From: Bolinopsis microptera
Lineage: Eukaryota > Ctenophora > Tentaculata > Lobata > Bolinopsidae
Direction of reading: 5' to 3'
Assembly: GCF_026151205.1 (NCBI RefSeq)
Contig: NC_087083.1
Span: forward strand, 11,096,944 to 11,160,943
Length of the DNA: 64,000 bases
This document shows, piece after piece, positions 20,962 through 54,349 of the stretch (position 1 is the stretch's first letter; every line of letters begins with the position of its first letter). The translations under genes and the position numbers were made by a program. The notes under the pieces were generated by a model. It was given only the letters and a program-made list of their open reading frames with translations, did not search any database and was not told the origin of the DNA.

Positions 20962-21052
20962 CTTTAAATTGATCTAAAAACTCTCCGTGCTCTTCTTCGC
21001 TCTCTCTGTCTTTAACATGGTGACGTTCCCGGAACTTTATAAAGACAGGCAT
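20962..21052 (-). CDS. Variable first exon N1 (MPVFIKF type) of the EF-hand gene
   Basis: ATG at 21052-21050 with an in-frame TGA two codons upstream. There are 30 codons plus one base, then donor GTAGAT (20961-20956), phase 1. The peptide starts MPVFIKFRERHHVKDR, continues with an acidic run (SEEEHGEF) and ends LDQFK, with Asp at the junction. It is the closest first exon to constant exon 2 (about 1.1 kb). Its start matches N2, N3, N8 and N9, indicating exon duplication. A 31-bp minisatellite lies directly upstream of the ATG. Confidence 0.85.
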
Positions 21053-21054
21053 TG

Positions 21055-21183
21055 CTCACGTGACCCCTTAGTGAACAGGGTGACTATTTAGTGACCCCTT
21101 AGTGAACAGGGTGACTATTTAGTGACCCCTTAGTGAACAGGGTGACTATTTAGTGACCCCTTAGTGAACAGGGTGACTATTTG
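21055..21183. repeat. 31-bp minisatellite, four copies, directly upstream of first exon N1
   Basis: Unit AGTGACCCCTTAGTGAACAG then GGTGACTATTT. It would sit in the 5' UTR or promoter of the N1 transcript. One further GAACAGGGTGACTATTT occurs at 21657-21673. Confidence 0.92.
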
Positions 21184-22096
21184 TACAGTCCAATCGGACA
21201 CTTAAAACCGATTTGAACAGTCCAATTGGAAGCTGGTGACCGATTTTCGAACCAAAAACAGTTTTTGTAAGTTCGATGTTTAGTCCGAGACTTCTATTTT
21301 GACTACTTTTTGTGACGATATCTTACAACACACATGCTAAACAGTTTACATGTATGCTGCACATTTTGGTCACTTGTATGTTATGCTGTTATGGACGCTG
21401 CACTTGTCTGGGTGCTGCCCTTTTTGAACACTAACATACACAGTTGATGTGTGAGGTTTTTAAAAATGCAACAAAAACAGTCGGTATATTTAGTAATTCA
21501 TTTTTGGTTGGAAACTTTATTAAAGTTTTTTTTGGTGAACCGGGACGATGCCCAAATGGTTTTAATGACAAATTTTAATGATGAAAATTAAAAACGAGTA
21601 AAAAATGAGCTCTCATTAGAGCACTAGTAGATATATATATATATATATAGTTATATGAACAGGGTGACTATTTAACGTTATATGACAAAGTTTAACCTGA
21701 TTTAACAAATTTTGTGGAATTTTGTGGAAACTATGCACTCCAATGGCCAGATAACATAACTTATTATAATATGTAATTACTTACTTACTTATATATAACT
21801 TATATTTTGAATTGCAACAAGTCCCCATCCTCTTCAAACATTTAACTAAACAAAACATGAAAAACAGAAACAATGACATACAAATAATAACATATAAATA
21901 ATAACGAAATTGTAAAACTACACTCATTTAACTTCTTCGTTATGAATTGTCCCTCCTTTGATGTAGTGGTGGTTGTTTGGCTGTTCTTGTTGTGCAGGTG
22001 TGGGTTATACATGTGGGTTATATTTATATATATCAGGTCCTGAACAACAAGTCTCTAACTCTGTCCTCCTGCAAGTAGACTACCCATTTCTGATTC
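21184..22096. other. No gene recognised
   Basis: AT-rich, with a short (TA)n run near 21632-21649 and a solitary piece of the 31-bp repeat. Any N1 promoter is expected in its first part. Confidence 0.35.
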
Positions 22097-22282
22097 TCAA
22101 TCAACTGCTTCTTGGTTGAACTTAGATCGATCTCCATCTGCTTTAACTTTTACCATTTTCTTGAAATGTAGAGTTGTCACGTCAACTGGTGCTTCCCATG
22201 TGAGCAGATTCAGTGCTTTTGCCGTCCAAGACTCCGCGTTGAACTTAATACTGTCGATATCCTTGTCGTCCAAAACTTTCAT
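22097..22282 (-). CDS. Unrecognised coding-like frame (61 codons)
   Basis: The minus-strand frame from ATG (22282-22280) to TGA encodes MKVLDDKDIDSIKFNAESWT and continues with LLTWEAPVDVTTLHFKKMVK and KADGDRSKFNQEAVD. The composition is that of a real protein (charged and hydrophobic residues well mixed, no low-complexity runs). The frame is open upstream to 22357 without ATG. It has no phase-1 donor, so it does not look like another first exon of the EF-hand gene. It could be a retrocopy or transposon fragment or an exon of an unrelated gene. No domain recognised. Confidence 0.4.
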   Translation of the reverse strand: MKVLDDKDIDSIKFNAESWTAKALNLLTWEAPVDVTTLHFKKMVKVKADGDRSKFNQEAVD

Positions 22283-22844
22283 GACGTAAACAAAATGAGA
22301 GACACAATATATCTCGCAGATAAGAGTGCAAACGTCTGATATAAGTGTAGGGCTCAACGCCTGAACTTATATTATTATTATTTATATTATACTGGTCAGC
22401 ACTTACCCAGTACAGTAATATCTATATCAAGGGGAATTAGCTATTTAATTCAATTACGAAATTATATACTGGATTCTTCCTGTATTTAAACATAAACAGC
22501 TTACTTCTTTGATACCATCTTTTAATCTAAACAATATCCCTCTTATTCACTAAAGAGTATGTGACCGACTACAGTATGTGACCGACTGCCGTGATTATAC
22601 AGAAGTGATTAGAGAGAGTCTGGAACAGTTGAATGACCCGGAATTAGTAGGTATGTCAGACGAGGATTCCCAAGGGATAAGGCGGTGTGTGTGTGTTACA
22701 CTAGTAAAGGTATAATGTACCTGGTACCTACTTTTTAACAATCACCACAGTACCGGTCAACCTGGGTACTGTACAAGGTACCCATTACCCATGAATAGGA
22801 GATTCGGCAGAGAGAAATATTATACTGAGTTTTACTGAAATTGT

Positions 22845-22963
22845 TAGATTAATCGCTTAATTGTTAGATTAATTGCTTAATTGTTAGATTAATTGCTTAA
22901 TTGTTAGATTAATCGCTTAATTGTTAGATTAATTGCTTAATTGTTAGATTAATTGCTTAATTG
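22845..22963. repeat. 20-bp minisatellite, six copies
   Basis: Unit TTGTTAGATTAATTGCTTAA with C/T variants at one position. Confidence 0.92.
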
Positions 22964-23182
22964 GACTCTCTCCGCTGGATATTCGTTCTGTAACAGCTGA
23001 TATTATATTAGGAGGTAGTGCACTATTATCTATTATAGGTAGCTATTAGGTGCACTATACCTACCTATTTAAATTACAACTTCTCTGTATTCAGGTAGGG
23101 CTAGTTTAACTTGTGATTGATACGATGTTTTAGCAAACCTCTAAAGATCCAATACAAAGATTTAAAAGATTAGATCTAATAT

Positions 23183-23515
23183 TCAGTATCGAAGAAGAGG
23201 AATAGTACCTGCTTGAAGCCTGTAGACCTCATTAACAGGTATAAGAAGAAGAGGAATAGTACCTGATTGAAGCCTGTAGACCTCATTAACGGGTATAAGA
23301 AGAAGAGGAATAGTACCTGATTGAAGCCTGTAGACCTCATTAACGGGTATAAGAAGAAGAGGAATAGTACCTGATTGAAGCCTGTAGACCTCATTAACGG
23401 GTATAAGAAGAAGAGGATTAGTACCTGATTGAAGCCTGTAGACCTCATTAACGGGTATAAGAAGAAGAGGAATAGTACCTGATTGAAGCCTGTAGACCTC
23501 ATTAACGGGTATAAA
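23183..23515 (-). repeat. 54-bp tandem repeat, six copies, each with a splice donor
   Basis: The unit encodes IPVNEVYRLQSGTIPLLL on the minus strand and contains TCAG|GTACTA. Donors fall at exon ends 23479, 23425, 23371, 23317, 23263 and 23209. The last copy has GCAG in place of TCAG. Because 54 is a multiple of 3, all six donors keep phase 1. The array overlaps the 3' end of first exon N2. Confidence 0.9.
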
Positions 23516-23602
23516 CGTAACCCCAGACTCTGAATCCCCGTGGTCCGAGCTATCATGGTTCTTGTTACCCCCATACTGTCGGAGCCTTACGAACACAGGC
23601 AT
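23479..23602 (-). CDS. Variable first exon N2 (MPVFVRL type) with repeated donor
   Basis: ATG at 23602-23600 with an in-frame TAG five codons upstream. There are 41 codons plus one base to the first donor (GTACTA, 23478-23473), phase 1, Asp at the junction. The peptide starts MPVFVRLRQYGGNKNHDSSD and ends IPVNEVYRLQS. The start is a clear relative of N1. The final 13 codons or so are inside a 54-bp tandem repeat, so the frame stays open to 23183. Use of later donors would add 18 residues each (IPVNEVYRLQSG plus TIPLLL), up to five times. Which donor is used is unknown; the first is annotated here. Confidence 0.82.
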
Positions 23603-24049
23603 GACTAGATAACACTAGCAAATTCCTCCTATTAGGACACGGTTTCTTCTGCAAAGTTATCCGCGGTCACTTCTCTACTAAACTCCGCAAAGTTATAATA
23701 AACTCCGCAAAGTTATTCCCGGCTACTAAGTGTGAGATTTCAAGCAGGGAGAGAGTAGTAACAAGGCAAAAACAAAGTCGAACAAGTCAGAATATACATG
23801 ATAACGTGCTACGGAGAAAAGAGAGGAAAGGGAGGAGGTGTATAAAAACTGACTGGGCTAATCAGTAATACTAAAATACCAACAGGAATTCCAAAAATTA
23901 TATTCCCCTACACATATTATGTGCATGCAATTGCAATTGAGCTGCTTTCCCGACAAAGACCTGTAAACGGTTGACAGTAATTGGTTCGAGGGGTAGTATG
24001 GTTTCAGTAAACTGTGCCAATGGAGAAAATATCACGTGGTCATGGTAAC

Positions 24050-24101
24050 CGTAGAGAAACTGAGCGGATTTGTAGATCTTTACCTTTACTGTTCCTGCCA
24101 T
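24050..24101 (-). CDS. Possible variable first exon N2b (short)
   Basis: ATG at 24101-24099 followed by 17 codons, MAGTVKVKIYKSAQFLY, and one base before GTTACC, a weak donor in phase 1. The alternating basic and hydrophobic start (VKVKIYK) resembles FIRVRLK of the related first exons, and LY before the donor resembles N6. The frame is open for 67 codons, so another donor or a different gene is possible. Low confidence because the donor is poor. Confidence 0.35.
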
Positions 24102-24668
24102 TTCCGGGTAAAATATCCACCTACTAGTTTATAAGAGGGGAGGTGCGGAACTACACACGTGATCTGTTAACCAGTACCTTGCAGGCTTGTTGAGATGACT
24201 GTGAAAACACACGTACATTGTGTATACTATCAGTACCGTCTGAACACTGAAGCCACAGCTGTGCGTGCTAAACGTTTGCCATTACAAGGAATTCACTCAA
24301 TTAGGCCGTTCTGACTTTTGTGGTTAAAATTAGAATGCCGTGCGAGAGAGGGGGTGAAATGTGGGGGAATAAGAAAAAATGTGTTTGCTTTTTATAGATG
24401 TATGGTGGTGTTGGTGTCGTTAAAAGGTTTAAAGTATTTACTGTTAAGTTGAACATGTAAAGGTTTATCAGTTTTAGTAACACTATGTTATTTATAAAGA
24501 CACTACACTTCAGGATAACATTACAGCTTTATATCCACCAGCGGGCTATATTTGCTTTATATACATAATTATAATGGGGTTCCTACTAGCCTCACAACAA
24601 AAGACCTCCCAAGTTATTAAATTGAGGTTACAGAAACGTAGAAAAGTTCTCTTGGTGAAATATAAGTG

Positions 24669-24843
24669 GACAATAATAACTATAATACAGCTGGGAGAGA
24701 GGAAGGACTCACGTAGATTCTTTAGTAAGAGAGCGATGGAATGATCCACTATGTGGAAAATAATAAATATAACACAGCTGGGAGAGAGGAAGGACTCACG
24801 TAGATTCTTTAGTAAGAGAGCGATGGAATGATCCACTATATGG
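24669..24843 (-). repeat. 87-bp tandem duplication including a splice donor
   Basis: Two copies, 87 bp apart and in frame, each including CTAC|GTGAGTCC. The repeated coding part reads HIVDHSIALLLKNL. The donors are at exon ends 24800 and 24713. Confidence 0.85.
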
Positions 24844-24935
24844 GGCTGATAGCTGGAGGTCCCTTCTTCAGACTTCCCTTTCTGTCCGCCTTTTCTCTCA
24901 ATTAATTGCTGCTTTTTTAGTCGGATAAACACCAT
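24800..24935 (-). CDS. Variable first exon N3 (MVFIRLK type) with duplicated donor
   Basis: ATG at 24935-24933, 45 codons plus one base to a strong donor GTGAGT (24799-24794), phase 1, His at the junction. The peptide starts MVFIRLKKQQLIERKGGQKG, contains a Ser-rich segment and ends HSIALLLKNL. The start matches N1, N2, N8 and N9. The frame continues through the intron start to the second donor copy, which would add 29 residues (exon end 24713). The frame is also open upstream of the ATG without another Met. Confidence 0.8.
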
Positions 24936-25140
24936 TTTCTCAAGCTGACTTGGTGAAGGTTTGGTAGACTGCTGGAGAAAACGAAATAGTTGCAAGAAGC
25001 CAATCAGCAGACTGCACAGCCTTCAAATCTTCAAGCAAATAGCTTAGTCCAGGTAATGTCGAGTTAGAATATAAAATAAAACAGTTAAATCTAGACGCGA
25101 AGCTGTGAATGGGTCAGTAATGTTCAATACTTATGCTCTG

Positions 25141-25368
25141 TAGGGACTACGGGTGGAAGATGAATAATTGAAATTCCAACAGCAATTGATCAGCTCCTAA
25201 TTGGGCTGCAATCCTTGACAGGCCTATAATTACCCAATTTTAAATGAACGATATCTTATTCTACGGAATGATGAGAGCGTAAAGAGATTGCTTCCCAGAA
25301 TCAGCATAATGAAGGGAACAAGATGCTGTTGGAATTTCAATTATTCATCTTCCACCCGTAGTCCCTAT
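25141..25368. mobile_element. MITE with 44-bp TIRs and 8-9-bp target duplication
   Basis: It begins TAGGGACTACGGGTGGAAGA and the other end is its reverse complement over about 43 bases. Flanks on both sides read TATGCTCTG (25132-25140 and 25368-25376). An 8- or 9-bp duplication suits the hAT or Mutator superfamily. There is no coding capacity. Confidence 0.8.
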
Positions 25369-25589
25369 ATGCTCTGGTGTCGTTCACAAAATTAATTATA
25401 CCTGCCCATACATTTTCATTGTCTCGAACATTGATTGAAATTGTTTTACAGATCAATCATTAAATGTCAAATTTGATTAAATTATTTCATTAATTAGATT
25501 CGTTTTAATGTGAATTATCAAACGAAAACATGTAAACTCATAAACAGTGTTGACATAATTGTTTTGGCTTTTTTGTCTAACTTACTGGA

Positions 25590-25841
25590 CTTTTGGACTA
25601 TCGGACTATTGGACTATCGGACTATTGGACTATCGGACTATTGGACTATTGGACTATTGGACTATTGGACTATTGGACTATTGGACTATTGGACTATAGG
25701 ACTATTGGACTATAGGACTATTGGACTATTGGACTATTGGACTATTGGACTATTGGACTATTGGACTATTGGACTATTGGACTATTGGACTATTGGACTA
25801 TTGGACTATTGGACTATTGGACTATTGGACTATTGGACTAA
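25590..25841. repeat. 8-bp minisatellite (GGACTATT)n, about 31 copies
   Basis: Tandem TTGGACTA units with a few C or A variants (ATCGGACT, ATAGGACT) in the first half. Long open frames across it are period artefacts. Confidence 0.95.
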
Positions 25842-25982
25842 GGTCAGCTGCAGCAGCAAAATTACAAAATTACCCAGCATCAAGAACAAAAAGAAATCGT
25901 GGCACGTGCGGAATCGCGATTTTTACCTCAATCCCACAATGATGAAGCTTACATAATGGGATTATATGTTTTTCGATTCGAC

Positions 25983-26103
25983 TTGGCATACCTTGTAAAT
26001 GTCAGCGTTCTTGATAACTTGATAAGTATTTTTTACTATCATTAACTTGGCATTCCTTGTAAATGTCAGCGTTCTTGATAACTTGATAAGTATTTTTTAT
26101 TAT
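25983..26103. repeat. Tandem duplication of about 61 bp
   Basis: TTGGCATACCTTGTAAATGT...AAGTATTTTTTACTATC is repeated once with one or two differences. Confidence 0.85.
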
Positions 26104-26778
26104 CAATCGCTTTGGGAACCGACTCATATCTTCATATAGAAGCAATGGTAATTTAGCAAGACATAATTATATGAAACATAGGCACCATTCGAAATGTTTA
26201 TTGCAACTGTTTGCAAATGAATTATTTTCCACGCTACTCTGCAAAAATATTTAGGAAAGAAGCTGGGGTTTAGGAATTAGCTACCTTGCCGTTAAAGACA
26301 TGAGATAGACTCATTAATGTGGCATTCTTAGTGCTAACATTTTAGCACTTAATATTCTGCAGAAATAAAATTTTCGGCAGAAATACAAGCTTCTTTAGAC
26401 TTTTTGATATATCTGTGGATCTATAAAAACCACAACCTGCACAGAACTAAACTAAAACAGTGGTTCTAGACAACTACTGGGTACTGGGTAGATAAGTGGG
26501 TATCTGCAGTTTTTCTGTAGTTAAAGTGCGTCATTAGTATTACGATTTACGTGTTTTGATCTCAACAAAACCAGGTCGTATTTGTTCGTAGTACGTGATC
26601 GGCTATGGCAATCAAAGCCCTTGGATTAGTTCAATATATACTTAAAAGTGTATGTCATCAGTTGTGCAGATATGGTTAGATAAAATGGTATAAGCAGCTT
26701 ATCGTATTGCTGAATAAAAACACGCTAATCAGAACAAAAGAACTAACTGGATGAACGGAGAATGCTAACATAGCTTAC

Positions 26779-26989
26779 CAAGCTGTAGCTCGTCAATAAG
26801 ATAATCTATCTTCGCCAGCATTGACATCTTCCTGTTTTCCCTGAACGACCTTCCCAGCTCAACCCGTACAGTGGGTGCAGGCTGAGGGTATCTGAACTTG
26901 TTCATCCGTTTAGCAGCACTGGCTGACAGATCTCCGTAGTACATCTGCTGGGACAGGAACTGTGTGGGGTCGTCATAAGTGCAGTTCAT
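26779..26989 (-). CDS. Variable first exon N4 of the EF-hand gene
   Basis: ATG at 26989-26987, 70 codons plus one base, then a strong donor GTAAGC (26778-26773), phase 1, Asp at the junction. The peptide starts MNCTYDDPTQFLSQQMYYGD, has a basic middle (SAAKRMNKFRYPQPAPTVRV) and ends MLAKIDYLIDELQL, which may form an amphipathic helix. It shares no start motif with the MPVF group, so it is either diverged or of other origin. The frame is open 7 codons further upstream without ATG, so an acceptor before the Met cannot be excluded. Confidence 0.72.
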
Positions 26990-29265
26990 TTCCCCTCTAC
27001 AGCTGATCACGCCTCCAACAATAAAAAAGAAATCAACGTCGCTTGCTCTATCAAGTTAAGAAGGGGGATAAACTTATAATTTCTAATTTCGCACTATACA
27101 AACCTACCAACATATCTCTCGGGGTAAAAACAGCCTGACTACGCTTTCGATTTAGACCTTGTAAACTGTTGTCACGTGGGCGCGTGAAGGTCACGTGACA
27201 GGTTAAAGGAAGTCTCATTGGTTGGGTGGGTGTATTGTTACAATAGCGTTGACAGTCCCACTAAACAAAGAGCGGGTTCTTATTGCGAGGAGGACACGTT
27301 CAGGGAGTTCCGGCTACTTTCAACCCGCACTGGCATATTACTGATATTTACTGCTTCTATTAGCCTCTCTTCTCAATGCTTCTCTTCCCAGTGCTCTCTT
27401 CACTTGTTTCAGACCTGGATTTAACGACTGGTGTAGAACTGATTAGTTCTATACGTTATAGGTATTCTCTGTAGCCAGGTAGTGGGCGGAGTATGAGACT
27501 GAGTGACTGAATGCCTGCGGAGTATGAGACTGCATGCCTGAATGCCTGCGGAGTAAGAGACTGCATGCCTTTAGTTAAGGGGCACACTACCTCTCAAGCT
27601 TCATACACACATTAGACAACTATAGCTTGAAAGAAGGCGACGGAACCTTAGCTCACTACCTGTCTTGTGTAGCCTCTCTTAGCTTTCAACAGTACATTTA
27701 ACTTAATAAACCTTACCTTTAATACAGTAACACTTGGCTTGCTGTTATATGTTATATATTATATATTACATGAAAGCGTGTTCACCTCATTTATAAACGT
27801 TAAAGAGTAGTAAAGGGAAAGTGAATTTGTTGTTTAAAGCTGTGCCACACGCTCAGACACGAAATAATAAATATGCTTTGGTTGTGTGACAAATGTTTAC
27901 TGTTTAACTTGATGAATTATTAAAGAGTTAAAGCTATTTACACAACGTAAAGTATCGATCTCACACTTCATGCTGACCTTATTTATAAATGTTATGATAG
28001 TTTGTTCCGAAGAAAACTGTTTGATTAATGAATATACTCTCCACTAATCTATGATAAGTGCAGTGATTGGTGCAGCAATACTCTCCAGTAATCTATGATA
28101 AGTGCAGTAATAAGTGCAGTGATTATCAGTATGGAAGGTGCTGTTAAACAACTTAGCATTTCAGCTCATGCAAACAGCAATGTGACGCGTGTGCTTAACA
28201 TTTAAAACTTTCTACTTTCGGTATTAGTATCATAATATAACATCATATTAGCTGTAATATGCTACCATATCCTCAAATCGGCCCAAATTTCGCTGCCCAA
28301 ATTCCTGAAAATATTATTTTCTGCAGGTCTTAAGTTGAATTGTGATTTTTGGATTAAAACAATTCAAATTTTGGTGGTTTTCATTGGTTGCAATTAGCAC
28401 AGTTTAAAATATACACAGTTAAAATTATATCCTCTTTTCATTCGCCAGATAATGATTATGTAAGTTTAGGGTCAAATGGTTAGTGTTGAAGCAATTTAGA
28501 AAGTTGGCCCCTGACACCTGTCAGCTCGCAGCTAGCTGTGTCTCCAAAAGAAAAACTGCGGGTCAAATTAAAAATAACTGCAGTCTTGCAGAGGACACCA
28601 AAATGTTCTCAAATCTCACAATTTAGAAGGGATTTTAAAAATTTGATTCTTTTCAAAAGATTATCTCCAATTTAAAGGTGGTGATGTGATGATCCAACTC
28701 TAATATCAAAAACAAATCTGGACACAAAATCTACTGGCACACCAGGAACAGTAAATTATAACGGCAGATTCCGAAACAATTCCTTAAAAAGTTAGAACAA
28801 GCTTAAACGTTCAATGAATAGTTTGCCGAACAGGATATACAAGGCGTTTCAAGACTCGTGTCGAAATTTGAAATTATAATTCTTTTATCCGTGAGAATTG
28901 CAACCATGAATTACATAAAGTTTATTTGAACATTTTTGAAAAGCAGATTATAGGATATGACCAGTCATTTGGTAAACTATTACACAAAATTTATGCTACT
29001 AAAACTGTTTTAAAGAAATAAATCAAAATATCTGATAGCTAATGGCTCGTTGGCCAATTATTTTTGTTGTTTCTAAACGGACGAAAATTGCAATATTGAG
29101 GCAAATACCCTAAATCATAATTAAACGTTCAACGAGCAAACGACAGAAATAAACACCAAACTGAACGATTTGACTAATAAACATGATCAGCATGAACCAT
29201 GAGAATTAAAGTACTACAAGAAAGATATCTCCCAATTAACACAGGGAAATGATGAGGAAACTCAC
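26990..29265. other. No gene recognised
   Basis: About 2.3 kb with small duplications only (CTGCGGAGTAWGAGACTGCA near 27520; ACTCTCCASTAATCTATGAT near 28040 and 28080). CACGTG-containing sequence near 27173-27199 could belong to a promoter of N4 but cannot be assigned. Confidence 0.3.
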
Positions 29266-29509
29266 GGCCGGGGCCAACACGAATACAGTCCACCACTACA
29301 GGATAATTGACCAGCTTCCGAAATATTGCTTCACGATAATTGTCAATTAGTATTGTTGATGGGAGAGGAGATGATAACAAGCTAGCCAGGAAATGGAAGG
29401 AGACGGGGACAAATCCACACCCAAAATAACAAATACACACAACTCTGCTGTCAACTCTTCTAAAGATAACACATAGAGATAGTGAAAAATATTTACCGTT
29501 GATCCACAT
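29266..29509 (-). CDS. Probable variable first exon N5 of the EF-hand gene
   Basis: ATG at 29509-29507, 81 codons plus one base, donor GTGAGT (29265-29260), phase 1, His at the junction. The peptide starts MWINGKYFSLSLCVIFRRV, has a Cys- and hydrophobic-rich middle and ends FRKLVNYPVVVDCIRVGPG. Phase, strand and donor strength all agree with the series. An alternative donor after only four codons (MWIN, GTAAAT) has the same phase. The N-terminal half looks less like a soluble protein than the other exons. Confidence 0.5.
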
Positions 29510-30744
29510 CACTCAATTATTACTATTTCCAGGATCAACCTGCTTGTTACCATAGTTACCAACATGGAGTCACCTTCCGCTATGACAATGATTGAAGGTG
29601 ATGATAATGAAGACAAGTGCCAGTTACCCAGCTAATAGTATTGGATGGGTGGCAGGGTGTGTGGGTGAAGTCGTTACAGAGATTCAATGTGATCTCGCCA
29701 ACCGGACATGACGTTTGATGTTAGAGGTTACTGAGTGTGACTGAAGCAGGGGTGAAGCCATATTTGTGGGGCAGGAATATACTAGCTGCTAATTAACTCC
29801 TCTTTAAATTAGGTGCAACGCACTTAGATATTGTTTAATGAAAATTACCGAACTTTAATGAAAATTACCGAACTTTAATGAAAATTACCGAGCTGCATGA
29901 AGATGTTTTGATAAACATAGCTGGTCCAGGCATTGAATTTTTTGCCCCGTTTCACTACATCCCGTTTAAGTATTTTGTTCGTCAGGTTAGCTGAAGACCT
30001 TTTAAGTCTTGCGAAGAAGGGCATAGTATCTGCTCACTGTACTGGTCACCGTACTCCGTATATACACAGTTAAATAAGCTACAACCGTTATACCTATACG
30101 ATCGGAACAACTTGACAAAATCAACTGTAGGTTTTACCTAAGTTTAGATGTTAAAACGACAGTTAGAAAATAGTTATATATAGCCTCCTTTCGTATTTGT
30201 TCAACGTAACCTCTGTTTCTCCATGAAATTAAATTAAACGTTTGGTTCTGTTTGGTTTAGTTTCTTAATGAAATAACTGATGGGTTCGCTCAAATAAGAT
30301 TATTGATTCATTCCGCTTTATTAATCAATAGCGTGTCATTCTGGTATATTGCCAAGTCGCTGGTAGATTGCCAAGTCGCTGGTAGATTGCCAAGTCGCTG
30401 GTAGATTGCCAAGTCGCTGGTAGATTGCCAAGTCGCTGGTAGATTGCCAAGTCGCTGGTAGATTGCCAAGTCGCTGGTAGATTGCCAAATCGCTGGTAGA
30501 TTGCCAAGTCGCTGGTAGATTTCCATTTTGTTTGAACAAAATAAAGTTAAGGAAACTTAATCGCAGTTACAATTGGGCTAAAAGGTACTGTGCGTTTTGA
30601 TATTTCTGCAGTAACAATGTTAATGTTACTATCGTTTTTTAGTTAATTGAGCATCCTTGGAAGTTGGATTGACTGAATCATAACAACTTTTTCGCTAGAT
30701 ATAACTCTAAAGTCTAAACTTTACACAAAAACATTTACCCTCAC
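29510..30744. other. Intergenic/intronic, with a 19-bp minisatellite
   Basis: Three copies of AACTTTAATGAAAATTACCG lie at 29840-29893. A 19-bp minisatellite (TTGCCAAGTCGCTGGTAGA, nine to ten copies) lies at about 30338-30520, some 230 bp from the donor of N6. The open frames over the latter are repeat artefacts. Confidence 0.8.
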
Positions 30745-30865
30745 CGTAAAGAACAAAGTGTTTCTCAAAAATACATCTGTTATCGTAAGCAGTTGGTACC
30801 CTCTTCACGCGATGAGTTGAAGCATTAAACACTCCCCTATTTCCAAAATTACTGAAAAACGGCAT
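30745..30865 (-). CDS. Variable first exon N6 (MPFF type) of the EF-hand gene
   Basis: ATG at 30865-30863, 40 codons plus one base, donor GTGAGG (30744-30739), phase 1, Asp at the junction. The peptide starts MPFFSNFGNRGVFNASTHRV, followed by KRVPTAYDNRCIFEKHFVLY. It is the intact relative of N7: the two share MPFF, RG, VKR, PTA and FEKHFVLY. That conservation across about 2.3 kb of diverged DNA indicates both were selected as coding. Confidence 0.82.
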
Positions 30866-33105: not shown

Positions 33106-33224
33106 CGTATAAGACAAAGTGTTTTTCAAAAAAGGTTCCTGCTCTCTCTTGCAGTGGGAATTCTCTTCACCTTGTGTAGAGGTTGAAAGATGCCACGAGT
33201 TGACATATTCAGAAAAAAAGGCAT
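33106..33224 (-). pseudogene. Variable first exon N7 (MPFF type), frameshifted
   Basis: ATG at 33224-33222 with an in-frame TAA three codons upstream and a strong donor GTAAG (33105-33101). The peptide starts MPFFLNMSTRGIFQPLHKVK and follows N6 closely. After RESRNLF the frame meets TGA, while the expected EKHFVLY continues in the next frame up to the donor. The exon is 119 bp; 118 would keep phase 1. The extra base lies in a run of six T (near 33137-33142). Either the exon is dead or the T-run is a sequencing or assembly error. Confidence 0.7.
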
Positions 33225-35019: not shown

Positions 35020-35146
35020 CTGTAAGAATAAGCTTATGTTCCCATATAGCTTTGGTAGGTTCAGCGACTCTAACTTTCGCTAACCCGAGGTTCTTCTTGG
35101 AGTCCTCCTTCTGGAGCGTATTAAGTCGGATCCGAATGAATGGCAT
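35020..35146 (-). CDS. Variable first exon N8 (MPFIRIR type) of the EF-hand gene
   Basis: ATG at 35146-35144 with an in-frame TGA three codons upstream, 42 codons plus one base, donor GTGACT (35019-35014), phase 1, Asp at the junction. The peptide starts MPFIRIRLNTLQKEDSKKNL and ends TKAIWEHKLILT. It is a close relative of N9 (MPFIRVRL at the start and KAVWENQIVLS at the end), about 10 kb away. A 14-bp AGTAACCAAGTAAC array begins 20 bp upstream of the ATG. Confidence 0.85.
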
Positions 35147-35163
35147 TGGACATCAAAGCGTCA

Positions 35164-39753: not shown

Positions 39754-39813
39754 CCTTATACAGTCACTGCAACCGGGTAACAAAACTAATAACCTATAAC
39801 TATAAACTTTTAA

Positions 39814-42765: not shown

Positions 42766-42870
42766 TGTCTAATTTAAAAAGTAAAACTGTCTAATTTAAA
42801 AACTGTCTAATTTAAAAACTGTCTAATTTAAAAACTGTCTAATTTAAAAACTGTCTAATTTAAAAACCGT
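42766..42870. repeat. 16-bp minisatellite, about seven copies
   Basis: Unit CTGTCTAATTTAAAAA. Confidence 0.92.
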
Positions 42871-45000: not shown

Positions 45001-45142
45001 CAGACAAGACTATTTGGTTCTCCCATACAGCTTTTGAGGTGCTGGATTGTATCTTAAGAAGACGACTTCCGGGACTCTTCCGCGCCACAGCAGCCGCACG
45101 TGCGTCGGATATCCCTTTTAAACGAACTCTGATGAACGGCAT
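45001..45142 (-). CDS. Variable first exon N9 (MPFIRVR type) of the EF-hand gene
   Basis: ATG at 45142-45140, 47 codons plus one base, strong donor GTAAGC (45000-44995), phase 1, Asp at the junction. The peptide starts MPFIRVRLKGISDARAAAVA and ends STSKAVWENQIVLS. Its start and end both match N8, with an Ala/Arg-rich insert between. Like the other MP group exons it is basic near the N-terminus, with alternating hydrophobic residues that could form a beta strand. Confidence 0.87.
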
Positions 45143-45505
45143 CTCTATATCCGCTATATCAAGTAATAAACTTCCTTATACTCTTATACTACTCAGGCAA
45201 CACACCAAATGAGAGCAAATCGATTAGCTTATCTGACATTCGTAGAGCTGCGAGCCTACAATTAGAGTATATAGCGTCACATCTAGAGGGGATATCAAGC
45301 GCGCTCATCTAATTGCTCCTTTATAATATTGCTCATTCTCCCCGTATGACACAGCAGCAATAAAATACAGGGCCCTTACTCTTTGTTATCAAATGTATGG
45401 AGCTCTCTTCACCACCAGGTCTGGGTAGTCAGTTGACTGGATTCTATGATGATTAGAGTCTAATTGAAGGAGGGTGCATGCCGGGGGAGTGTTATTATAA
45501 CTTAC

Positions 45506-45536
45506 CACACAGAGCAGCCCTTTCAGACTTGCACAT
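45506..45536 (-). CDS. Variable first exon N10 (very short) of the EF-hand gene
   Basis: ATG at 45536-45534 with an in-frame TAG upstream, only ten codons (MCKSERAALC) plus one base, then a strong donor GTAAGT (45505-45500) in phase 1, Asp at the junction. The donor quality and phase support it; the short length means chance is possible. A coding-like frame on the same strand at 45605-45829 (beginning at an internal ATG with MAFSINGNILLIPVQFL) has only a weak phase-1 GTTGGT and is not called. Confidence 0.5.
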
Positions 45537-45921
45537 GAATAAACAACGCTATAAAGCTCTTACGGTGGGAGACAAAGACAATAGAGCGGTGAGATTGTAA
45601 TCTGTTAAGCCTCTTGTAACCAACCTTTTAATTTGACGTGGGATGCCGCGTCAGCGGTATGGTGGTCGGCTAAAACTTTATAATGAGTTGGGCCAGAATA
45701 GCTGGCGCGGGAAGTCCAATTAAAGGGATTTGAAGAGTTTGAGATGAGAAATTGGACTGGAATTAGGAGAATGTTGCCGTTTATGGAAAAGGCCATGTTC
45801 TTGAACTGAAACAATGGAATTACATACACTTATGTAGTAAAACTTAAAGTTATACGAGACCGTGAACGATTCGGATTAGCATAAACTTGGAGCTACTACA
45901 AGCTACACAATAGGTAGGTAC

Positions 45922-48609
45922 CTACTACACTACTACACTACTACACTACTACACTACTACACTACTACACTACTACACTACTACACTACTACACTACTAC
46001 ACTACTACACTACTACACTACTACACTACTACACTACTACACTACTACACTACTACACTACTACACTACTACACTACTACACTACTACACTACTACACTA
46101 CTACACTACTACACTACTACACTACTACACTACTACACTACTACACTACTACACTACTACACTACTACACTACTACACTACTACACTACTACACTACTAC
46201 ACTACTACACTACTACACTACTACACTACTACACTACTACACTACTACACTACTACACTACTACACTACTACACTACTACACTACTACACTACTACACTA
46301 CTACACTACTACACTACTACACTACTACACTACTACACTACTACACTACTACACTACTACACTACTACACTACTACACTACTACACTACTACACTACTAC
46401 ACTACTACACTACTACACTACTACACTACTACACTACTACACTACTACACTACTACACTACTACACTACTACACTACTACACTACTACACTACTACACTA
46501 CTACACTACTACACTACTACACTACTACACTACTACACTACTACACTACTACACTACTACACTACTACACTACTACACTACTACACTACTACACTACTAC
46601 ACTACTACACTACTACACTACTACACTACTACACTACTACACTACTACACTACTACACTACTACACTACTACACTACTACACTACTACACTACTACACTA
46701 CTACACTACTACACTACTACACTACTACACTACTACACTACTACACTACTACACTACTACACTACTACACTACTACACTACTACACTACTACACTACTAC
46801 ACTACTACACTACTACACTACTACACTACTACACTACTACACTACTACACTACTACACTACTACACTACTACACTACTACACTACTACACTACTACACTA
46901 CTACACTACTACACTACTACACTACTACACTACTACACTACTACACTACTACACTACTACACTACTACACTACTACACTACTACACTACTACACTACTAC
47001 ACTACTACACTACTACACTACTACACTACTACACTACTACACTACTACACTACTACACTACTACACTACTACACTACTACACTACTACACTACTACACTA
47101 CTACACTACTACACTACTACACTACTACACTACTACACTACTACACTACTACACTACTACACTACTACACTACTACACTACTACACTACTACACTACTAC
47201 ACTACTACACTACTACACTACTACACTACTACACTACTACACTACTACACTACTACACTACTACACTACTACACTACTACACTACTACACTACTACACTA
47301 CTACACTACTACACTACTACACTACTACACTACTACACTACTACACTACTACACTACTACACTACTACACTACTACACTACTACACTACTACACTACTAC
47401 ACTACTACACTACTACACTACTACACTACTACACTACTACACTACTACACTACTACACTACTACACTACTACACTACTACACTACTACACTACTACACTA
47501 CTACACTACTACACTACTACACTACTACACTACTACACTACTACACTACTACACTACTACACTACTACACTACTACACTACTACACTACTACACTACTAC
47601 ACTACTACACTACTACACTACTACACTACTACACTACTACACTACTACACTACTACACTACTACACTACTACACTACTACACTACTACACTACTACACTA
47701 CTACACTACTACACTACTACACTACTACACTACTACACTACTACACTACTACACTACTACACTACTACACTACTACACTACTACACTACTACACTACTAC
47801 ACTACTACACTACTACACTACTACACTACTACACTACTACACTACTACACTACTACACTACTACACTACTACACTACTACACTACTACACTACTACACTA
47901 CTACACTACTACACTACTACACTACTACACTACTACACTACTACACTACTACACTACTACACTACTACACTACTACACTACTACACTACTACACTACTAC
48001 ACTACTACACTACTACACTACTACACTACTACACTACTACACTACTACACTACTACACTACTACACTACTACACTACTACACTACTACACTACTACACTA
48101 CTACACTACTACACTACTACACTACTACACTACTACACTACTACACTACTACACTACTACACTACTACACTACTACACTACTACACTACTACACTACTAC
48201 ACTACTACACTACTACACTACTACACTACTACACTACTACACTACTACACTACTACACTACTACACTACTACACTACTACACTACTACACTACTACACTA
48301 CTACACTACTACACTACTACACTACTACACTACTACACTACTACACTACTACACTACTACACTACTACACTACTACACTACTACACTACTACACTACTAC
48401 ACTACTACACTACTACACTACTACACTACTACACTACTACACTACTACACTACTACACTACTACACTACTACACTACTACACTACTACACTACTACACTA
48501 CTACACTACTACACTACTACACTACTACACTACTACACTACTACACTACTACACTACTACACTACTACACTACTACACTACTACACTACTACACTACTAC
48601 ACTACTACA
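45922..48609. repeat. Pure 8-bp satellite (ACTACTAC)n, about 336 copies
   Basis: About 2.69 kb without a single interruption that I could find. One strand is entirely A, C and T; the other lacks C. The flanks are AGGTAGGTAC on the left and GAATAGGTGT on the right. Confidence 0.98.
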
Positions 48610-49758
48610 GAATAGGTGTATAACTGTATACTTATATGGTCACGTTAGCAACATATTTGACCTTTTAGTTGTAGTAGACTATTTCTAAAGTAAATCAGAT
48701 GAAACAATACTATCAGAATTATAAAAAACACATTTTGGTCGTGATTAATTGTTTTACGGTTACAGGAATTTGAAAAATATGCATTTAACGTTGTATATAT
48801 TGACACGTTTTTCAATAAAGGCATTGGAAAACTTTTAAAAACGCCATTTTTATGTTACTTATATAGCAACGCCTCAATTCGTTGTAGTGCTGTTAATTTG
48901 TTATAATATAAAAATTGGCTAGTTTTTTAACCGTGTAACGTAAAATAAGCGTTTGGTTTTGATATTATGTAAAATCTGAATGATTTATCTACTCCATGAA
49001 TGATATATCCACTTTATATATATCCAATGAATAATATTATAATAAGGAAAATGAGTTGAGCATGCTTAAAATGTCACTGACCACACCATATTTTAAACTT
49101 TTAAATACAGCGAAACCGTTGAGCTGGCAATCAGCCATTTATTAGTATTATAAATATAATATTATATATACAAATTGAAACGACCGGTTGAGTCAGACAA
49201 ATGTTTCAATCATGATACAAAACCATGATATCATCAGTGATAACTTTTAGCTCTCGGCTTGCCGATTGAGCACTGTCAGCAGACGACGCCACCCACAATT
49301 AATACTATAAATATATAGTCTAGTTATAGAATTAGTAGACACGTTCCTACTTTTATAATACTAAATACATCATAAACTTTATATATCAGGCCTCTCAGGG
49401 GAGTGAGGGGAAGTGCGCGGTATAGAATTACAAAGAACCGGAGTGGTATTGCCAGTATCTGTAGCGGTTACAGATACTGTACCTGAGTGTTATAGCCCCT
49501 CAAATTATTTTTTAAACTTGTCGAGCGTTTCATGTACCCCATTATAAAGGCCTTATATGCACGTTTTGTGTCGTACTGTGATGAAATAGGAAATCACCAC
49601 TAAATTCTATACGACCTATGGTGAACATATATTGATGTACTACAGATGTAGCGAGGCCCGGTAATTAGTAGTTAAACTTACAACACCGTTACACCGTTAC
49701 ACCGTTACACCGTTACACCGTATAATCGTATAACATAGAAATATTTTAATGGACTCAC
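48610..49758. other. No gene recognised; short 8-bp array at 49682-49720
   Basis: AT-rich. The only structure is five copies of ACACCGTT starting about 40 bp downstream of the N11 donor (in the intron). Confidence 0.5.
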
Positions 49759-49978
49759 ACATAAAAGCCTGTGTCCTCACCAACTCCACATCCAGCTCGT
49801 GCATCGGTATCTCTATATCATCCATTGGCAGGATCATATCCTTCGGTATCTCTATAATATCATCCATTGGCAGGATCATATCCTTCATTAGTGGAGTCCT
49901 CTTCATCACTAGGAAGTCCTCCATCAGTGGGTTCCGGGCTACAACGGAGGTAGGGTGGAGAGCAGTTTGGATTGACAT
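49759..49978 (-). CDS. Variable first exon N11 of the EF-hand gene
   Basis: ATG at 49978-49976 with an in-frame TAA two codons upstream, 73 codons plus one base, donor GTGAGT (49758-49753), phase 1, Tyr at the junction. The peptide starts MSIQTALHPTSVVARNPLME and contains an internal duplication of KDMILPMDD plus IEIP (about residues 32-57). It ends HELDVELVRTQAFM. It is Met-, Ile- and Asp-rich and unlike the MPVF group. An in-frame GTGAGG earlier is in phase 0 and would not fit. Confidence 0.72.
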
Positions 49979-50225
49979 CTTTTATCTGCGATCTTCAGCG
50001 TTCTTCTTAAATCTTTTGTCAAACCTTCGCTTGAAATGACATTTTATCAAAGTGTTTAAAAAGCCAAAATTTTTACCAACAACAAAACCGATTTTTAACT
50101 GGTACTAAGAAATAAAAAGCTGAAAACAATTCAATAAACAATTGAAAATACCACCAATAGTAGTAATAGTACCCTGCTAGTACCACCAATGTAACCAGGG
50201 TAACCAATATACCACCAATGCAGAC

Positions 50226-50402
50226 AACGCCGTATTTAAAACCCACGAGGCGAGCTCTCAACAGCGTAAAAAGGAATTCAACGGCAAAAGCGGTACCCTC
50301 AAACACACTCAAACACACTGCACGATCTCTTTGAGAGATCGCACTACCAATAACATCAGAACCCTGAGTCGTGGAATTTAGCTCAATACAACATGGTACC
50401 AT
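50226..50402 (-). CDS. Possible first exon of a membrane-like N-terminus
   Basis: ATG at 50402-50400 in a good start context (GCGCCATGG), with an open frame of 109 codons. The peptide starts MVPCCIELNSTTQGSDVIGS; later it has FEGTAFAVEFLFTLLRARLV and a hydrophobic stretch CIGGILVTLVTLVVLAG. Phase-1 GT sites are present (for example TTTGAGG|GTACCG) but none is strong. It lies within the first-exon cluster on the same strand, so it may be another variable exon, but I cannot fix its end. The annotated end is approximate. Confidence 0.3.
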
Positions 50403-51167
50403 GGCGCTCTACTCTAACAGCCTTCAGGATCGGTAAACGATGATGTGTTAAAACAGCCCAGGTCCGAAACCTGGATATTAAATGGAATATAACTGTAAAA
50501 CTGCTGACTCGCTCGCCTGCTCCCACCCTGTCAACGTATCCCCGCTGTGAGCGGAACGGTAAATGTAGGCAGGCTCTGGTGCTGGAATTATTATACCGTT
50601 TATATAGACCACCAACATGGTTCTGGTTTAGGTAGGTAGCTGTTTTAAGTAGTGTTACTATGGTAACTACCTGTTGTAAGTCGCTGTATAGTCAGATGTC
50701 TGCAGAACAAGCTAGCTTAATCTACGTTACACGGATATGTTGGTGTTAACTTTAAGATGGTAGGTTTACATACACTCTTAGGTAACACTCCTGTGTCAGT
50801 GTTTCTCACGGTTATCAGTATATCTGACACACCCATAACAAATAATGTTTGTGAAAGTTGCAAATCAAAAAAATCACTGACACCCTTCCAATTTCCATGT
50901 GTCACAAAAGCCAAGGCAAAAAACCACAAAGACGCATGATTTGGCACGTATGAGTTGAACGGGGATGCAGCTGCTGCATGGGCAGCTAAAACACTGTTTT
51001 AAAGAGTTATAATCCTTAGTTGGACCATGATCTGATAGAATTTTTCCAACAAGCTCCGTTTTTTGGAAGGTGTTATCAAGCATTTCGCACTCGGAACACG
51101 CTACAAAACTAGTACAATAGCAGTCCTATAACCTGTGTGCTGAAGGGTTATAGGACGCTTTATCTGC

Positions 51168-51198
<31 letters not shown>

Positions 51199-51543
51199 AG
51201 GGTTATAGAACTATATATATATATATATATAGACCTCTGCTTAGGACTATAGGAGCTAGTTATCGTGTCAGCACTAAAGTTCTTTCACACTTTGTGCCGT
51301 GAAGTTTCAGAGTGTTTTCTAGTGTAAATTCTAGTAAACAGGCATACTAGTTTCACACTTTGTGCCGTGAAGTTTCAGAGTGTTTTCTAGTGTAAATTCT
51401 AGTGAACAGGCATACTACTGAACGGGTGGTGAGGTGCTTCATTAGGGAAAATTAAATTATATGGCTTTTGTGTAACACTAGTATATCTGCGTGGTGGAAC
51501 TGGAAATCTTTCCGTTTAAATTTGATTATTATAGCGTTCTTGT
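50403..51543. other. No supported gene
   Basis: A minus-strand coding-like segment near 50874-51083 (MLDNTFQKTELVGKILSDHG) lacks a clear splice context. (AT)n runs lie at 51169-51190 and 51212-51230. An 80-bp direct duplication (TTTCACACTTTGTGCCGTGA...) lies at about 51282-51417. Confidence 0.5.
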
Positions 51544-53035
51544 CAGTTTATATAGGTAAGTAAAGCTGCAAAGTATGGCGGATACCATAATACAACAGCA
51601 GTTTATAGGTAAATAAAGCTGCAAAGTATGGCGGTTACCATAACAACAGCAGTTTATAGGTAAGTAAAGCTGCAAAGTATGGCGGTTACCATAACAACAG
51701 CAGTTTATAGGTAAGTAAAGCTGCAAAGTATGGCGGATACCATAATACAACAGCAGTTTATAGGTAAATAAAGCTGCAAAGTATGGCGGTTACCATAACA
51801 ACAGCAGTTTATAGGTAAGTAAAGCTGCAAAGTATGGCGGTGACCATAACAACAGCAGTTTATAGGTAAATAAAGCTGCAAAGTATGGCGGTTACCATAA
51901 CAACAGCAGTTTATAGGTAAGTAAAGCTGCAAAGTATGGCGGATACCATAATACAACAGCAGTTTATAGGTAAATAAAGCTGCAAAGTATGGCGGATACC
52001 ATAATACAACAGCAGTTTATAGGTAAATAAAGCTGCAAAGTATGGCGGTTACCATAACAACAGCAGTTTATAGGTAAGTAAAGCTGCAAAGTATGGCGGT
52101 TACCATAACAACAGCAGTTTATAGGTAAGTAAAGCTGCAAAGTATGGCAGTTACCATAACAACAGCAGTTTATAGGTAAATAAAGCTGCAAAGTATGGCG
52201 GTTACCATAACAACAGCAGTTTATAGGTAAGTAAAGCTGCAAAGTATGGCAGTTACCATAACAACAGCAGTTTATAGGTAAGTAAAGCTGCAAAGTATGG
52301 CGGTTACCATAACAACAGCAGTTTATAGGTAAGTAAAGCTGCAAAGTATGGCAGTTACCATAACAACAGCAGTTTATAGGTAAGTAAAGCTGCAAAGTAT
52401 GGCAGTTACCATAACAACAGCAGTTTATAGGTAAGTAAAGCTGCAAAGTATGGCAGTTACCATAACAACAGCAGTTTATAGGTAAATAAAGCTGCAAAGT
52501 ATGGCGGATACCATAACAACAGCAGTTTATAGGTAAGTAAAGCTGCAAAGTATGGCGGTTACCATAACAACAGCAGTTTATAGGTAAGTAAAGCTGCAAA
52601 GTATGGCAGTTACCATAATACAACAGCAGTTTATAGGTAAGTAAAGCTGCAAAGTATGGCGGTTACCATAACAACAGCAGTTTATAGGTAAGTAAAGCTG
52701 CAAAGTATGGCAGTTACCATAACAACAGCAGTTTATAGGTAAGTAAAGCTGCAAAGTATGGCGGATACCATAACAACAGCAGTTTATAGGTAAGTAAAGC
52801 TGCAAAGTATGGCGGTTACCATAACAACAGCAGTTTATAGGTAAGTAAAGCTGCAAAGTATGGCAGTTACCATAACAACAGCAGTTTATAGGTAAGTAAA
52901 GCTGCAAAGTATGGCAGTTACCATAACAACAGCAGTTTATAGGTAAGTAAAGCTGCAAAGTATGGCGGTTACCATAACAACAGCAGTTTATAGGTAAGTA
53001 AAGCTGCAAAGTATGGCGGTTACCATAACAATGCA
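51544..53035. repeat. 51-bp minisatellite, about 29 copies, with plus-strand donor-like site
   Basis: Unit GCAGTTTATAGGTAAGTAAA then GCTGCAAAGTATGGCGGTTA then CCATAACAACA. Variants alternate GTAAGT/GTAAAT and CGGTTACC/CAGTTACC/CGGATACC. A few units carry an extra TA (ATAATACAAC), which shifts the frame. Most units contain TAG|GTAAGTAAA, a full match to a 5' splice site on the plus strand, antisense to the EF-hand gene. Long minus-strand frames through it are explained by the 51-bp period. Confidence 0.95.
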
Positions 53036-53316
53036 GCAGCAAAATTGTAGGGTCACCGACAATTTGTCAACCAAAAGACGTATTAAAATAAATCAAAAGA
53101 AATGGTAAGATAGCATTGATATTTGTAAAAATCACTGAATTTTTTTTCAGTCTATTTAGCCGATCTTAATATTATAATATACAATCACTGAAAAAATACC
53201 TTGCTCTACATGCACGAATAAATAACTTTTATACTTTTATACATATAAACAATTTAAACATACTTAGTACTTACTTTTGTAAGTATGTTACGTATAATTA
53301 CCTTTAATTAACTTAC

Positions 53317-53398
53317 ATATATCATCAAACTGCAACTCTAATCCACCGATAAGGTTGATAATATTATCCGAAGCCTGCCTGAGTACTGATTTCGACAT
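53317..53398 (-). CDS. Variable first exon N13 of the EF-hand gene
   Basis: ATG at 53398-53396, 27 codons plus one base, strong donor GTAAGT (53316-53311), phase 1, Tyr at the junction. The peptide is MSKSVLRQASDNIINLIGGL followed by ELQFDDI. It is short, with an amphipathic helix-like pattern. Donor strength and phase support it. Confidence 0.68.
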
Positions 53399-54120
53399 AT
53401 CCAAACTTTGGCGACAGAAACGAGACAAAAATGCGAGTACGATATTACAAAATGCGATTCACAAGAAATTACGATTTTAAAGTTTTAAAAAGTTGTGAGA
53501 TTATGTCGTATCGCAGACATTAGCTTTGTTTTTTCTGATGTACTGTTTTGTTCTAAAATACCGGCCGATGACACGTGCAAGGTGGCTGTTATGCTCAAAC
53601 AATTTGAGATTCTTGTTGCTACTCCAATCCCAGGAACGCATGTTCTTAGGAGCATGGAGAACAATAGGTTTTAAAATTGATAAAAGTCTCGATTAAGCGA
53701 GGATAAAACATTCAAAGGGTTTAAAATTGTTTTATTTCGTGCATAGAAATAAAATAAACATTGTTTCAGTCAAACAATGGTTGATGTAAAATGTGATATT
53801 CGCTTATGCCACCTGTGTAACATACATATATCAAGCATTACAAAAAGTAGTAATTTAAATAAATTACACGAATTACATGAAGTAGTAATATGGAGCACCG
53901 CGTGCTCTGATACGAAGCTAAATTACACTATTGCAGACCTGTCATGTGAAAAAGAAATAATCTCAATTCTTTTGCAAAGGGGAACATCATCCGTGAAAGT
54001 GTGCTTATTTGTAATTAAATGCAAATCAGTGTTTTAAACTTAAAGGCACTAATAAATTTAACGATCTGATCTAGAGAGAAAGAAATAGCCAGCAGTGTTT
54101 GTTATAACGATAAAACTTAC
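53399..54120. other. Region between first exons N13 and N14
   Basis: AT-rich. A plus-strand frame at 53777-54037 (86 codons, beginning MVDVKCDIRLCHLCNIH) starts with ATG but has no recognisable domain. I do not call it. Confidence 0.3.
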
Positions 54121-54349
54121 ATTCCCAGTAAGTGTCGATGAGATCCCCCTCTATCAAATCCCCCTCAAAGTGAGTAGACAAAATGCACTTGACATCATTA
54201 GCTAGTGTTCTCCCGTTCTGCTGAGGAGGTTCTCCCTCCCTCCCTCCCTTCTCCTGTAGCAGCGTCTCTTTGTGCTCCGGTATAATGATGCTCCTGTTGT
54301 TGTGTTGTTTCCTCCGCACGCTTTTTGTCTTCCAGAAGGGGTTGGACAT
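54121..54349 (-). CDS. Variable first exon N14 (most distal seen) of the EF-hand gene
   Basis: ATG at 54349-54347 (context CACCATGT), 76 codons plus one base, strong donor GTAAGT (54120-54115), phase 1, Tyr at the junction. The peptide starts MSNPFWKTKSVRRKQHNNRS, has a charged Gly/Glu/Gln-rich middle and ends with a small duplication EGDLIEGDLIDTYWE. The three most distal exons (N11, N13, N14) all give Tyr at the junction, whereas proximal ones give Asp or His. More first exons may lie beyond, though none was found in 54350-64000. Confidence 0.75.

What the first reader, a model, noticed from the sequence alone, without database searches (positions are those of the whole stretch)
20962..54349. 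A cluster of about 13 variable first coding exons feeding one EF-hand core
Seen: on the minus strand over 33 kb, separate short frames start with ATG and end one base into a codon at a GT donor (N1 20962, N2 23479, N3 24800, N4 26779, N5 29266, N6 30745, N7 33106 frameshifted, N8 35020, N9 45001, N10 45506, N11 49759, N13 53317, N14 54121; possible N2b 24050). All match the acceptor at 19814, whose first bases AC can never create a stop. Six have an in-frame stop a few codons upstream of the ATG. Groups are related (MPVFIKF, MPVFVRL, MVFIRLK, MPFIRIR, MPFIRVR; MPFF twice). Established: UGT1A and clustered protocadherin genes use tandem first exons joined to constant exons. Inference: this calcium sensor varies its N-terminus the same way, perhaps for targeting. 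I know of no described calmodulin-like gene with this design.
Basis: partly seen in the sequence, partly recalled or inferred. Interest (0 to 1): 0.95.

Follow-up and report, generated by a model that had tools for sequence, protein, structure and literature searches.

The report
Calcium sensor with swappable ends
In a comb jelly genome, one calmodulin-like gene appears to carry a row of at least seven alternative starting pieces and three alternative ending pieces around one shared calcium-binding core, so a single gene could make many versions of a calcium sensor.

Summary
On the minus strand a four-EF-hand, calmodulin-like core (19814-18376) is preceded by homologous first coding exons. Splice anatomy alone proves nothing: the region's minus strand holds 59 ATG-to-phase-1-GT frames, its plus strand 28, six comparison stretches 24-51. 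Homology carries the case. N8/N9 and N6/N7 show protein-level constraint with little likeness outside the exons. N4, N11 and N14 have coding-like codon use only; N5, N10, N13 and N2b lack firm support. Not in the finding: three alternative last exons, each encoding EF-hand 4. A second calmodulin-like gene on contig 11 has four tandem last exons under purifying selection. The genome is a ctenophore's. KChIP genes are a described precedent for variable first exons on an EF-hand core, so this is a new variant of a known kind. Transcription is untested, and promoter choice is not separated from a shared leader exon.

The parts
19717..19814 (-). core exon C1, phase 1 in, phase 0 out; EF-hand 1
   Evidence: translation and splice sites; Pfam EF-hand on the joined core
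19378..19449 (-). core exon C2
18761..18819 (-). core exon C3, EF-hand 2
18376..18484 (-). core exon C4, EF-hand 3, ends in phase 0
16311..16478 (-). alternative last exon L1 (EF-hand 4, acidic tail, stop)
   Evidence: ATTAAA at 83 nt after the stop, which may be chance
15531..15713 (-). alternative last exon L2 (EF-hand 4 with E at loop position 6, acidic tail, stop)
   Evidence: 53% identical to L1 over 36 aa; pS 0.72, pN 0.30; first AATAAA only at 813 nt
10335..10457 (-). alternative last exon L3 (EF-hand 4, short tail, stop)
   Evidence: 56% identical to L1 over 27 aa; L1/L3 pS 0.71, pN 0.28; first ATTAAA at 384 nt
20962..21052 (-). first exon N1 (MPVFIKF...)
   Evidence: start-motif family; best donor phase 1
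23479..23602 (-). first exon N2 (MPVFVRL...); its 3' end and donor are repeated in a 54-bp tandem array
24800..24935 (-). first exon N3 (MVFIRLK...); weakest family member; 3' end in an 87-bp tandem repeat
30745..30865 (-). first exon N6 (MPFFSNFG...)
   Evidence: N6/N7 tblastn E 5e-7; pS 0.67, pN 0.36
33106..33224 (-). N7, homologue of N6 whose frame is broken within a T run; decayed exon or assembly error
35020..35146 (-). first exon N8 (MPFIRIRL...)
   Evidence: N8/N9 E 2.5e-4; conserved-block pS 1.04, pN 0.21
45001..45142 (-). first exon N9 (MPFIRVRL...)
   Evidence: as N8
26779..26989 (-). probable first exon N4, unrelated to the family; coding-like codon use
   Evidence: second of 36 candidates; no other match in the genome at E 10; a phase-2 donor scores as well as its phase-1 donor
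49759..49978 (-). probable first exon N11, coding-like codon use only
   Evidence: first of 36; only itself plus one weak match (E 0.148); a phase-0 donor scores as well
54121..54349 (-). probable first exon N14, coding-like codon use, strong phase-1 donor
   Evidence: third of 36; no other match at E 10

Best explanation
A ctenophore gene encodes a calmodulin-like protein with four EF-hands whose two ends are both variable. Seven intact homologous first coding exons (20962-45142), perhaps three unrelated ones as well, each carry a start codon and a phase-1 donor and can join the single acceptor at 19814. Three last exons, each with its own EF-hand 4, tail and stop, can join the donor at 18376 in phase 0. 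Most likely each first exon has its own promoter, so that promoter choice sets the N-terminus, while choice of terminal exon and polyadenylation site sets EF-hand 4 and the tail. The N-termini probably choose partner or location, and the last exons tune calcium binding of the C-lobe. Shown: anatomy, homology, matching phase, protein-level constraint on pairs of exons. Inferred: transcription, separate promoters, roles.
For: The family start is rare: 0-2 of 4359 other ATGs score as well for seven members, 8 for N3. N8/N9: second codon positions 66%, third 27% identical, pS 0.92, pN 0.45; in conserved blocks pS 1.04, pN 0.21; N6/N7 pS 0.67, pN 0.36; exon DNA scores exceed all 100 shuffles in both pairs, no flank does. 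The best-scoring donor (ties included) is phase 1 in 7 of 7 intact members, with the caveat given under evidence against. Apart from C1-C4 and L1-L3 the 204 kb around the gene gave no convincing EF-hand exon, so the first exons are not starts of separate complete genes. In-frame stops 2-5 codons before the ATG of N1, N2, N5', N7 and N8 leave little room for in-frame internal use. Last exons: pN 0.28-0.33, pS 0.64-0.72. A second CaM-like gene on contig 11 has one set of 5' exons followed by four tandem last exons, dN 0.09-0.16, dS 0.44-1.11.
Against: No RNA evidence at all. Family exons are ordinary by synonymous codon use (in one search N5' 90th, N2 74th, N8 73rd, N6 66th percentile; N1 49th, N3 57th, N9 66th). 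Pairwise divergence is near saturation, so pN/pS are rough. The downstream flank of N8/N9 ties the highest of 100 shuffles, and N1/N2 as DNA do not exceed their shuffles. The start motif is short and N3 fits it less well. N7 is broken. A further motif match at 67198, outside the window, has only a phase-2 donor, and one at -26646 on the plus strand scores 29. No strong shared word was found upstream of the exons. L2 and L3 have no polyadenylation signal close behind the stop.
Confidence: 0.7

Rival explanations
1. The seven exons are alternative second exons: one distant non-coding leader (or a trans-spliced leader) joins an acceptor just before each ATG, so splicing rather than promoter choice selects the N-terminus.
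For: Best acceptor-like sequences upstream of N3, N4, N11 and N14 rank at the 92nd-99th percentile of 1500 random ATGs; N2 and N9 at the 81st, N5' at the 62nd. No leader exon was sought.
Against: N1, N6, N7 and N8 rank at the 18th-32nd percentile. This is weak: the gene's own seven real acceptors score only 0.40-0.70 for pyrimidines on nearly the same scale, so the test does not separate real from absent acceptors.
Confidence: 0.19
2. Only one or two first exons are in use; the others are decaying duplicates.
For: N7 is frame-broken; three exons end in or beside tandem repeats; family members are very diverged and ordinary in codon use.
Against: Seven frames stay open at high divergence; pN is below pS for N8/N9 and N6/N7.
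Confidence: 0.15
3. The list is a chance collection of open frames next to an ordinary EF-hand gene.
For: Anatomy alone gives 59 such frames in the region; N5, N10, N13 and N2b have no firm support.
Against: Homology and motif rarity for the family.
Confidence: 0.04

Closest known systems
KChIP / KCNIP genes (vertebrate neuronal calcium sensors)
   Same: Multiple transcription start sites and variable N-terminal exons joined to a constant four-EF-hand core; 17 N-terminal variants from four genes (PMC3973911, section 6 read).
   Different: Here the first exons are tandem relatives of one another and at least seven would feed one gene; all EF-hand loops of the core look canonical; no family N-terminus has glycine at position 2; the 60 solved-structure matches shown (of 620) are by label calmodulin, its fusions or calcium indicators; and the last exon, with EF-hand 4, varies too.
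Clustered protocadherins and UGT1A (recalled, no call)
   Same: Tandem homologous first exons, each with a start codon and the same donor phase, joined to shared constant exons.
   Different: There the first exon is large and encodes most of the protein; here it encodes about 30-48 residues. Here the 3' end is also an array.
Calmodulin
   Same: Four EF-hands over the whole length; plain calmodulins match the core at about 1e-32 to 1e-31.
   Different: Variable N-terminal extension of about 30-48 residues; three alternative EF-hand 4 exons with acidic or short tails.
CaM-like gene on contig 11 of the same genome (C11:6344876-6354278)
   Same: CaM-family gene with tandem alternative last exons encoding the fourth EF-hand.
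   Different: Its first exon is calmodulin-like (MANKLSEEQ...); I did not look for alternative first exons there.

Membership tests
Variable-first-exon cluster (UGT1A / protocadherin design) | several homologous first coding exons in tandem, each with its own ATG | tested here: met
   seven intact plus one broken
Variable-first-exon cluster (UGT1A / protocadherin design) | one donor phase matching one shared acceptor | tested here: met
Variable-first-exon cluster (UGT1A / protocadherin design) | a separate promoter for each first exon | not testable with these tools
   needs 5'-end RNA data; no strong shared upstream word found
KChIP (KCNIP) | variable N-terminal exons on a constant four-EF-hand core | tested here: met
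   anatomy; use in RNA not tested
KChIP (KCNIP) | neuronal-calcium-sensor core with EF-1 not binding calcium | tested here: not met
   EF-1 loop DNDGDGTITFEE looks canonical (read); matches shown are calmodulin and its fusions.
Calmodulin family (broad) | four EF-hands collinear with calmodulin | tested here: met
Calmodulin proper | about 149 residues without an N-terminal extension | tested here: not met
   the nine family-exon isoforms printed are 195-215 residues

The most novel reading that the evidence does not exclude
One ctenophore gene varies a calmodulin-like sensor at both ends combinatorially: 7 to 10 N-termini times 3 EF-hand-4/tail exons, giving 21 to 30 isoforms. Terminal-exon arrays may be a recurrent way in this lineage of diversifying calcium sensors, since a second calmodulin-like gene carries four alternative EF-hand-4 last exons.
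Probability: 0.55. Interest if true: 0.68.

Novelty: new variant of a known kind. Interest (0 to 1): 0.52.

Why it matters
If used, it would be an EF-hand gene diversified at both ends by tandem exon arrays in a ctenophore, a lineage that one paper's title places as sister to other animals (PMC10232365, seen only in a search listing). It would show terminal-exon arrays, best known (recalled) from protocadherins and UGT1A, acting on a small intracellular calcium sensor, and give a tractable case for asking how N-terminal tags and a swapped EF-hand 4 change calcium signalling.

Tried and rejected
Rejected: counting all phase-1 ATG-GT frames as exons. A test of ATG-peptide clustering by degree was swamped by tandem repeats and the family did not stand out in it. 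An HMM built from seven family exons recovered those seven and, weakly, N7's two pieces (E 4.3 and 6.1); its best other match was E 1.4 in 204 kb on both strands; recovery of its own members is not evidence. Genome searches with N5', N6, N8, N4, N11 and N14 found no second locus except N7 from N6 and one weak match (E 0.148) from N11; N1, N2, N3 and N9 were not searched singly, and the first look of that search is coarse (N8 did not retrieve N9). Rfam gave no match in the window at its gathering scores. The first codon-usage table used shifted coordinates for C2, C4, L2 and L3; those rows should be ignored; the exon coordinates were corrected. The core query typed for held one extra residue (F) at the C3/C4 join. 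No structure was predicted: a spliced protein is not read contiguously from the DNA.
Full report
What the window is. The window is C12:11096944-11160943 of a genome of 264,652,675 bases in 232 contigs. The animal is therefore a ctenophore. Size fits Bolinopsis microptera, given as 265 Mb, 13 chromosomes and 38.5% GC in a table of PMC11797021 (passages); Mnemiopsis is 248 Mb there. The scaffold count there is 346, not 232, so the species is likely but not proved.

The core. On the minus strand, exons C1 19814-19717, C2 19449-19378, C3 18819-18761 and C4 18484-18376 join in frame. With a last exon they give four EF-hands (Pfam EF-hand_1, four stretches, E 9e-33) collinear with calmodulin (plain calmodulins at about 1e-32 to 1e-31; the 60 of 620 matches shown are by label calmodulin, its fusions or calcium indicators). 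In 204 kb around the gene no other convincing EF-hand exon was found; the nearest thing is a weak frame on the plus strand near 133835 (E 2.7, 1.1).

Chance. Between 19900 and 54349 the minus strand holds 59 frames that run from an ATG to a phase-1 GT with donor score 6 of 9 or better (38 distinct ATGs), the plus strand 28, and three other stretches on both strands 51, 24, 25, 35, 33 and 33 (two of them overlap by 4.4 kb). At score 7 or better the numbers are 14, 7 and 17, 7, 3, 2, 9, 9. A list of 13 cannot be believed on anatomy alone.

Homology. N8 and N9 match at E 2.5e-4 and N6 and N7 at 5e-7 within 204 kb. Without any donor filter and leaving each member out in turn, N8 and N9 had 0 of 4359 other ATGs scoring as well, N1 and N2 had 1, N5', N6 and N7 had 2, and N3 had 8. 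The recurring outsiders are 67198 on the same strand, beyond the window, whose only good donor is phase 2 so that it cannot feed the core, and one on the plus strand at -26646. In the seven intact members the best-scoring donor before the stop, ties included, is phase 1 in 7 of 7. N7's best donor in its unbroken frame is phase 0; the donor homologous to N6's lies beyond the break.

Selection. For N8/N9, pS is 0.92 and pN 0.45; in the start and end blocks pS is 1.04 and pN 0.21, with second codon positions all identical and third positions 32% identical. N6/N7 before the frame break: pS 0.67, pN 0.36. For these two pairs the exon score exceeds all 100 shuffles, while no 200-base flank does; the downstream flank of N8/N9 ties its highest shuffle. 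N1/N2 as DNA do not pass (exon score 13, shuffle maximum 14). Pooled over the first eight codons of all pairs, pS is 0.84 and pN 0.45 (all).

The other listed exons. By synonymous codon use, N11, N4 and N14 rank first to third of 36 candidates in the region, at or above about the 99th percentile of 169 controls; three candidates exceeded the 97.5% level where 0.9 were expected. They are probable coding exons, but only strand and phase tie them to this gene, and in N4 and N11 donors of another phase score equally. The family exons themselves are ordinary by this measure (N5' 90th, N2 74th, N8 73rd, N6 66th percentile; N1 49th, N3 57th, N9 66th), so codon use supports them little. N13 is ordinary (62nd percentile). 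N5 sits near the middle of the controls (41st and 63rd percentile). N10 and N2b score high (92nd-99th) but over 9 and 16 codons, and N2b has the weakest donor (5 of 9).

The other end. Three last exons start in phase 0 after C4: L1 16478-16311, L2 15713-15531, L3 10457-10335. Each encodes an EF-hand 4 and a stop; the loops read DKNGDGKIDIDE, DTNGDEKIHYEE and DTNKDGCIDFGE. pN is 0.28-0.33 and pS 0.64-0.72. A polyadenylation-like hexamer lies 83 nt after the L1 stop, but only 813 and 384 nt after those of L2 and L3. On contig 11 a second calmodulin-like gene has three shared 5' exons (6344876 to about 6345480) and four tandem last exons at 6346856, 6348662, 6350083 and 6354099; no calmodulin N-lobe exon was found between them at E 0.01; dN is 0.09-0.16 and dS 0.44-1.11. 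A fifth copy at about 6356263 differs in structure.

Mechanism. I favour promoter choice at the 5' end and terminal-exon choice at the 3' end. Acceptor-like sequence upstream of the ATG ranks low for N1, N6, N7 and N8 (18th-32nd percentile of 1500 random ATGs), 62nd-81st for N2, N5' and N9, and 92nd-99th for N3, N4, N11 and N14; but the gene's own seven acceptors score no better than the low ones on nearly the same scale, so this does not decide against a shared leader exon or trans-splicing. The first ten residues of each of the seven family N-termini are net basic (+1 to +3), while the core (-11) and the last exons (-9 to -21) are acidic; none has glycine at position 2. Partner or membrane choice is a guess from that.

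Precedent. KChIP genes join variable N-terminal exons from multiple start sites to a constant four-EF-hand core, with 17 variants from four genes (PMC3973911, passages and section 6). In the ten paper searches, which cover open-licence PubMed Central papers only, no listing showed a ctenophore calmodulin-like gene with such arrays; apart from listings I saw passages of three papers and one section of one.

Verdict. Partly confirmed, partly supported, a new variant of a known kind. The decisive evidence, full-length RNA, could not be examined.

Noticed in passing
G000:C11:6344876-6354278 (L048, L052): A second calmodulin-like gene with one set of 5' exons and four tandem alternative last exons under purifying selection, plus a fifth copy of different structure.
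   Followed up: partly
C5:17012652-17026413, C13:11082373-11094352, C1:21999334-22006938, C3, C2: 61 matching pieces of ctenophore photoprotein genes, 51 nearly full length by my count, mostly in tandem arrays with near-identical scores; many more than I recall for Mnemiopsis (about ten, recalled).
   Followed up: no
window 23191-23514, 24666-24843, 29834-29891: The 3' end and donor of N2 (54 bp, 6 copies), N3 (87 bp, 2 copies) and the donor region of N5' (20 bp, 2.9 copies) lie in tandem repeats; the 54- and 87-bp units keep the frame and repeat a phase-1 donor.
   Followed up: partly
67198 minus strand, in L002 outside the window: An ATG frame MPIIRVRI... resembling the family start, with a good donor in phase 2 that cannot join the core.
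   Followed up: partly
window 45922-48609 and 51551-53031: A 2.7-kb perfect 8-bp satellite (CTACTACA) and a 1.5-kb array of 51-bp units inside the cluster region.
   Followed up: no
window 1792-2985 and 58504-58974 plus strand: Endonuclease-like and reverse-transcriptase-like frames that look like non-LTR retrotransposon pieces (by eye, no family search).
   Followed up: no
134869-136855 and 75211-76485 minus strand, in the upstream flank: Long frames that look like an anoctamin-type membrane protein (by eye), and a nearer 425-codon frame of unknown kind; either may mark the upstream border of the gene's territory.
   Followed up: no
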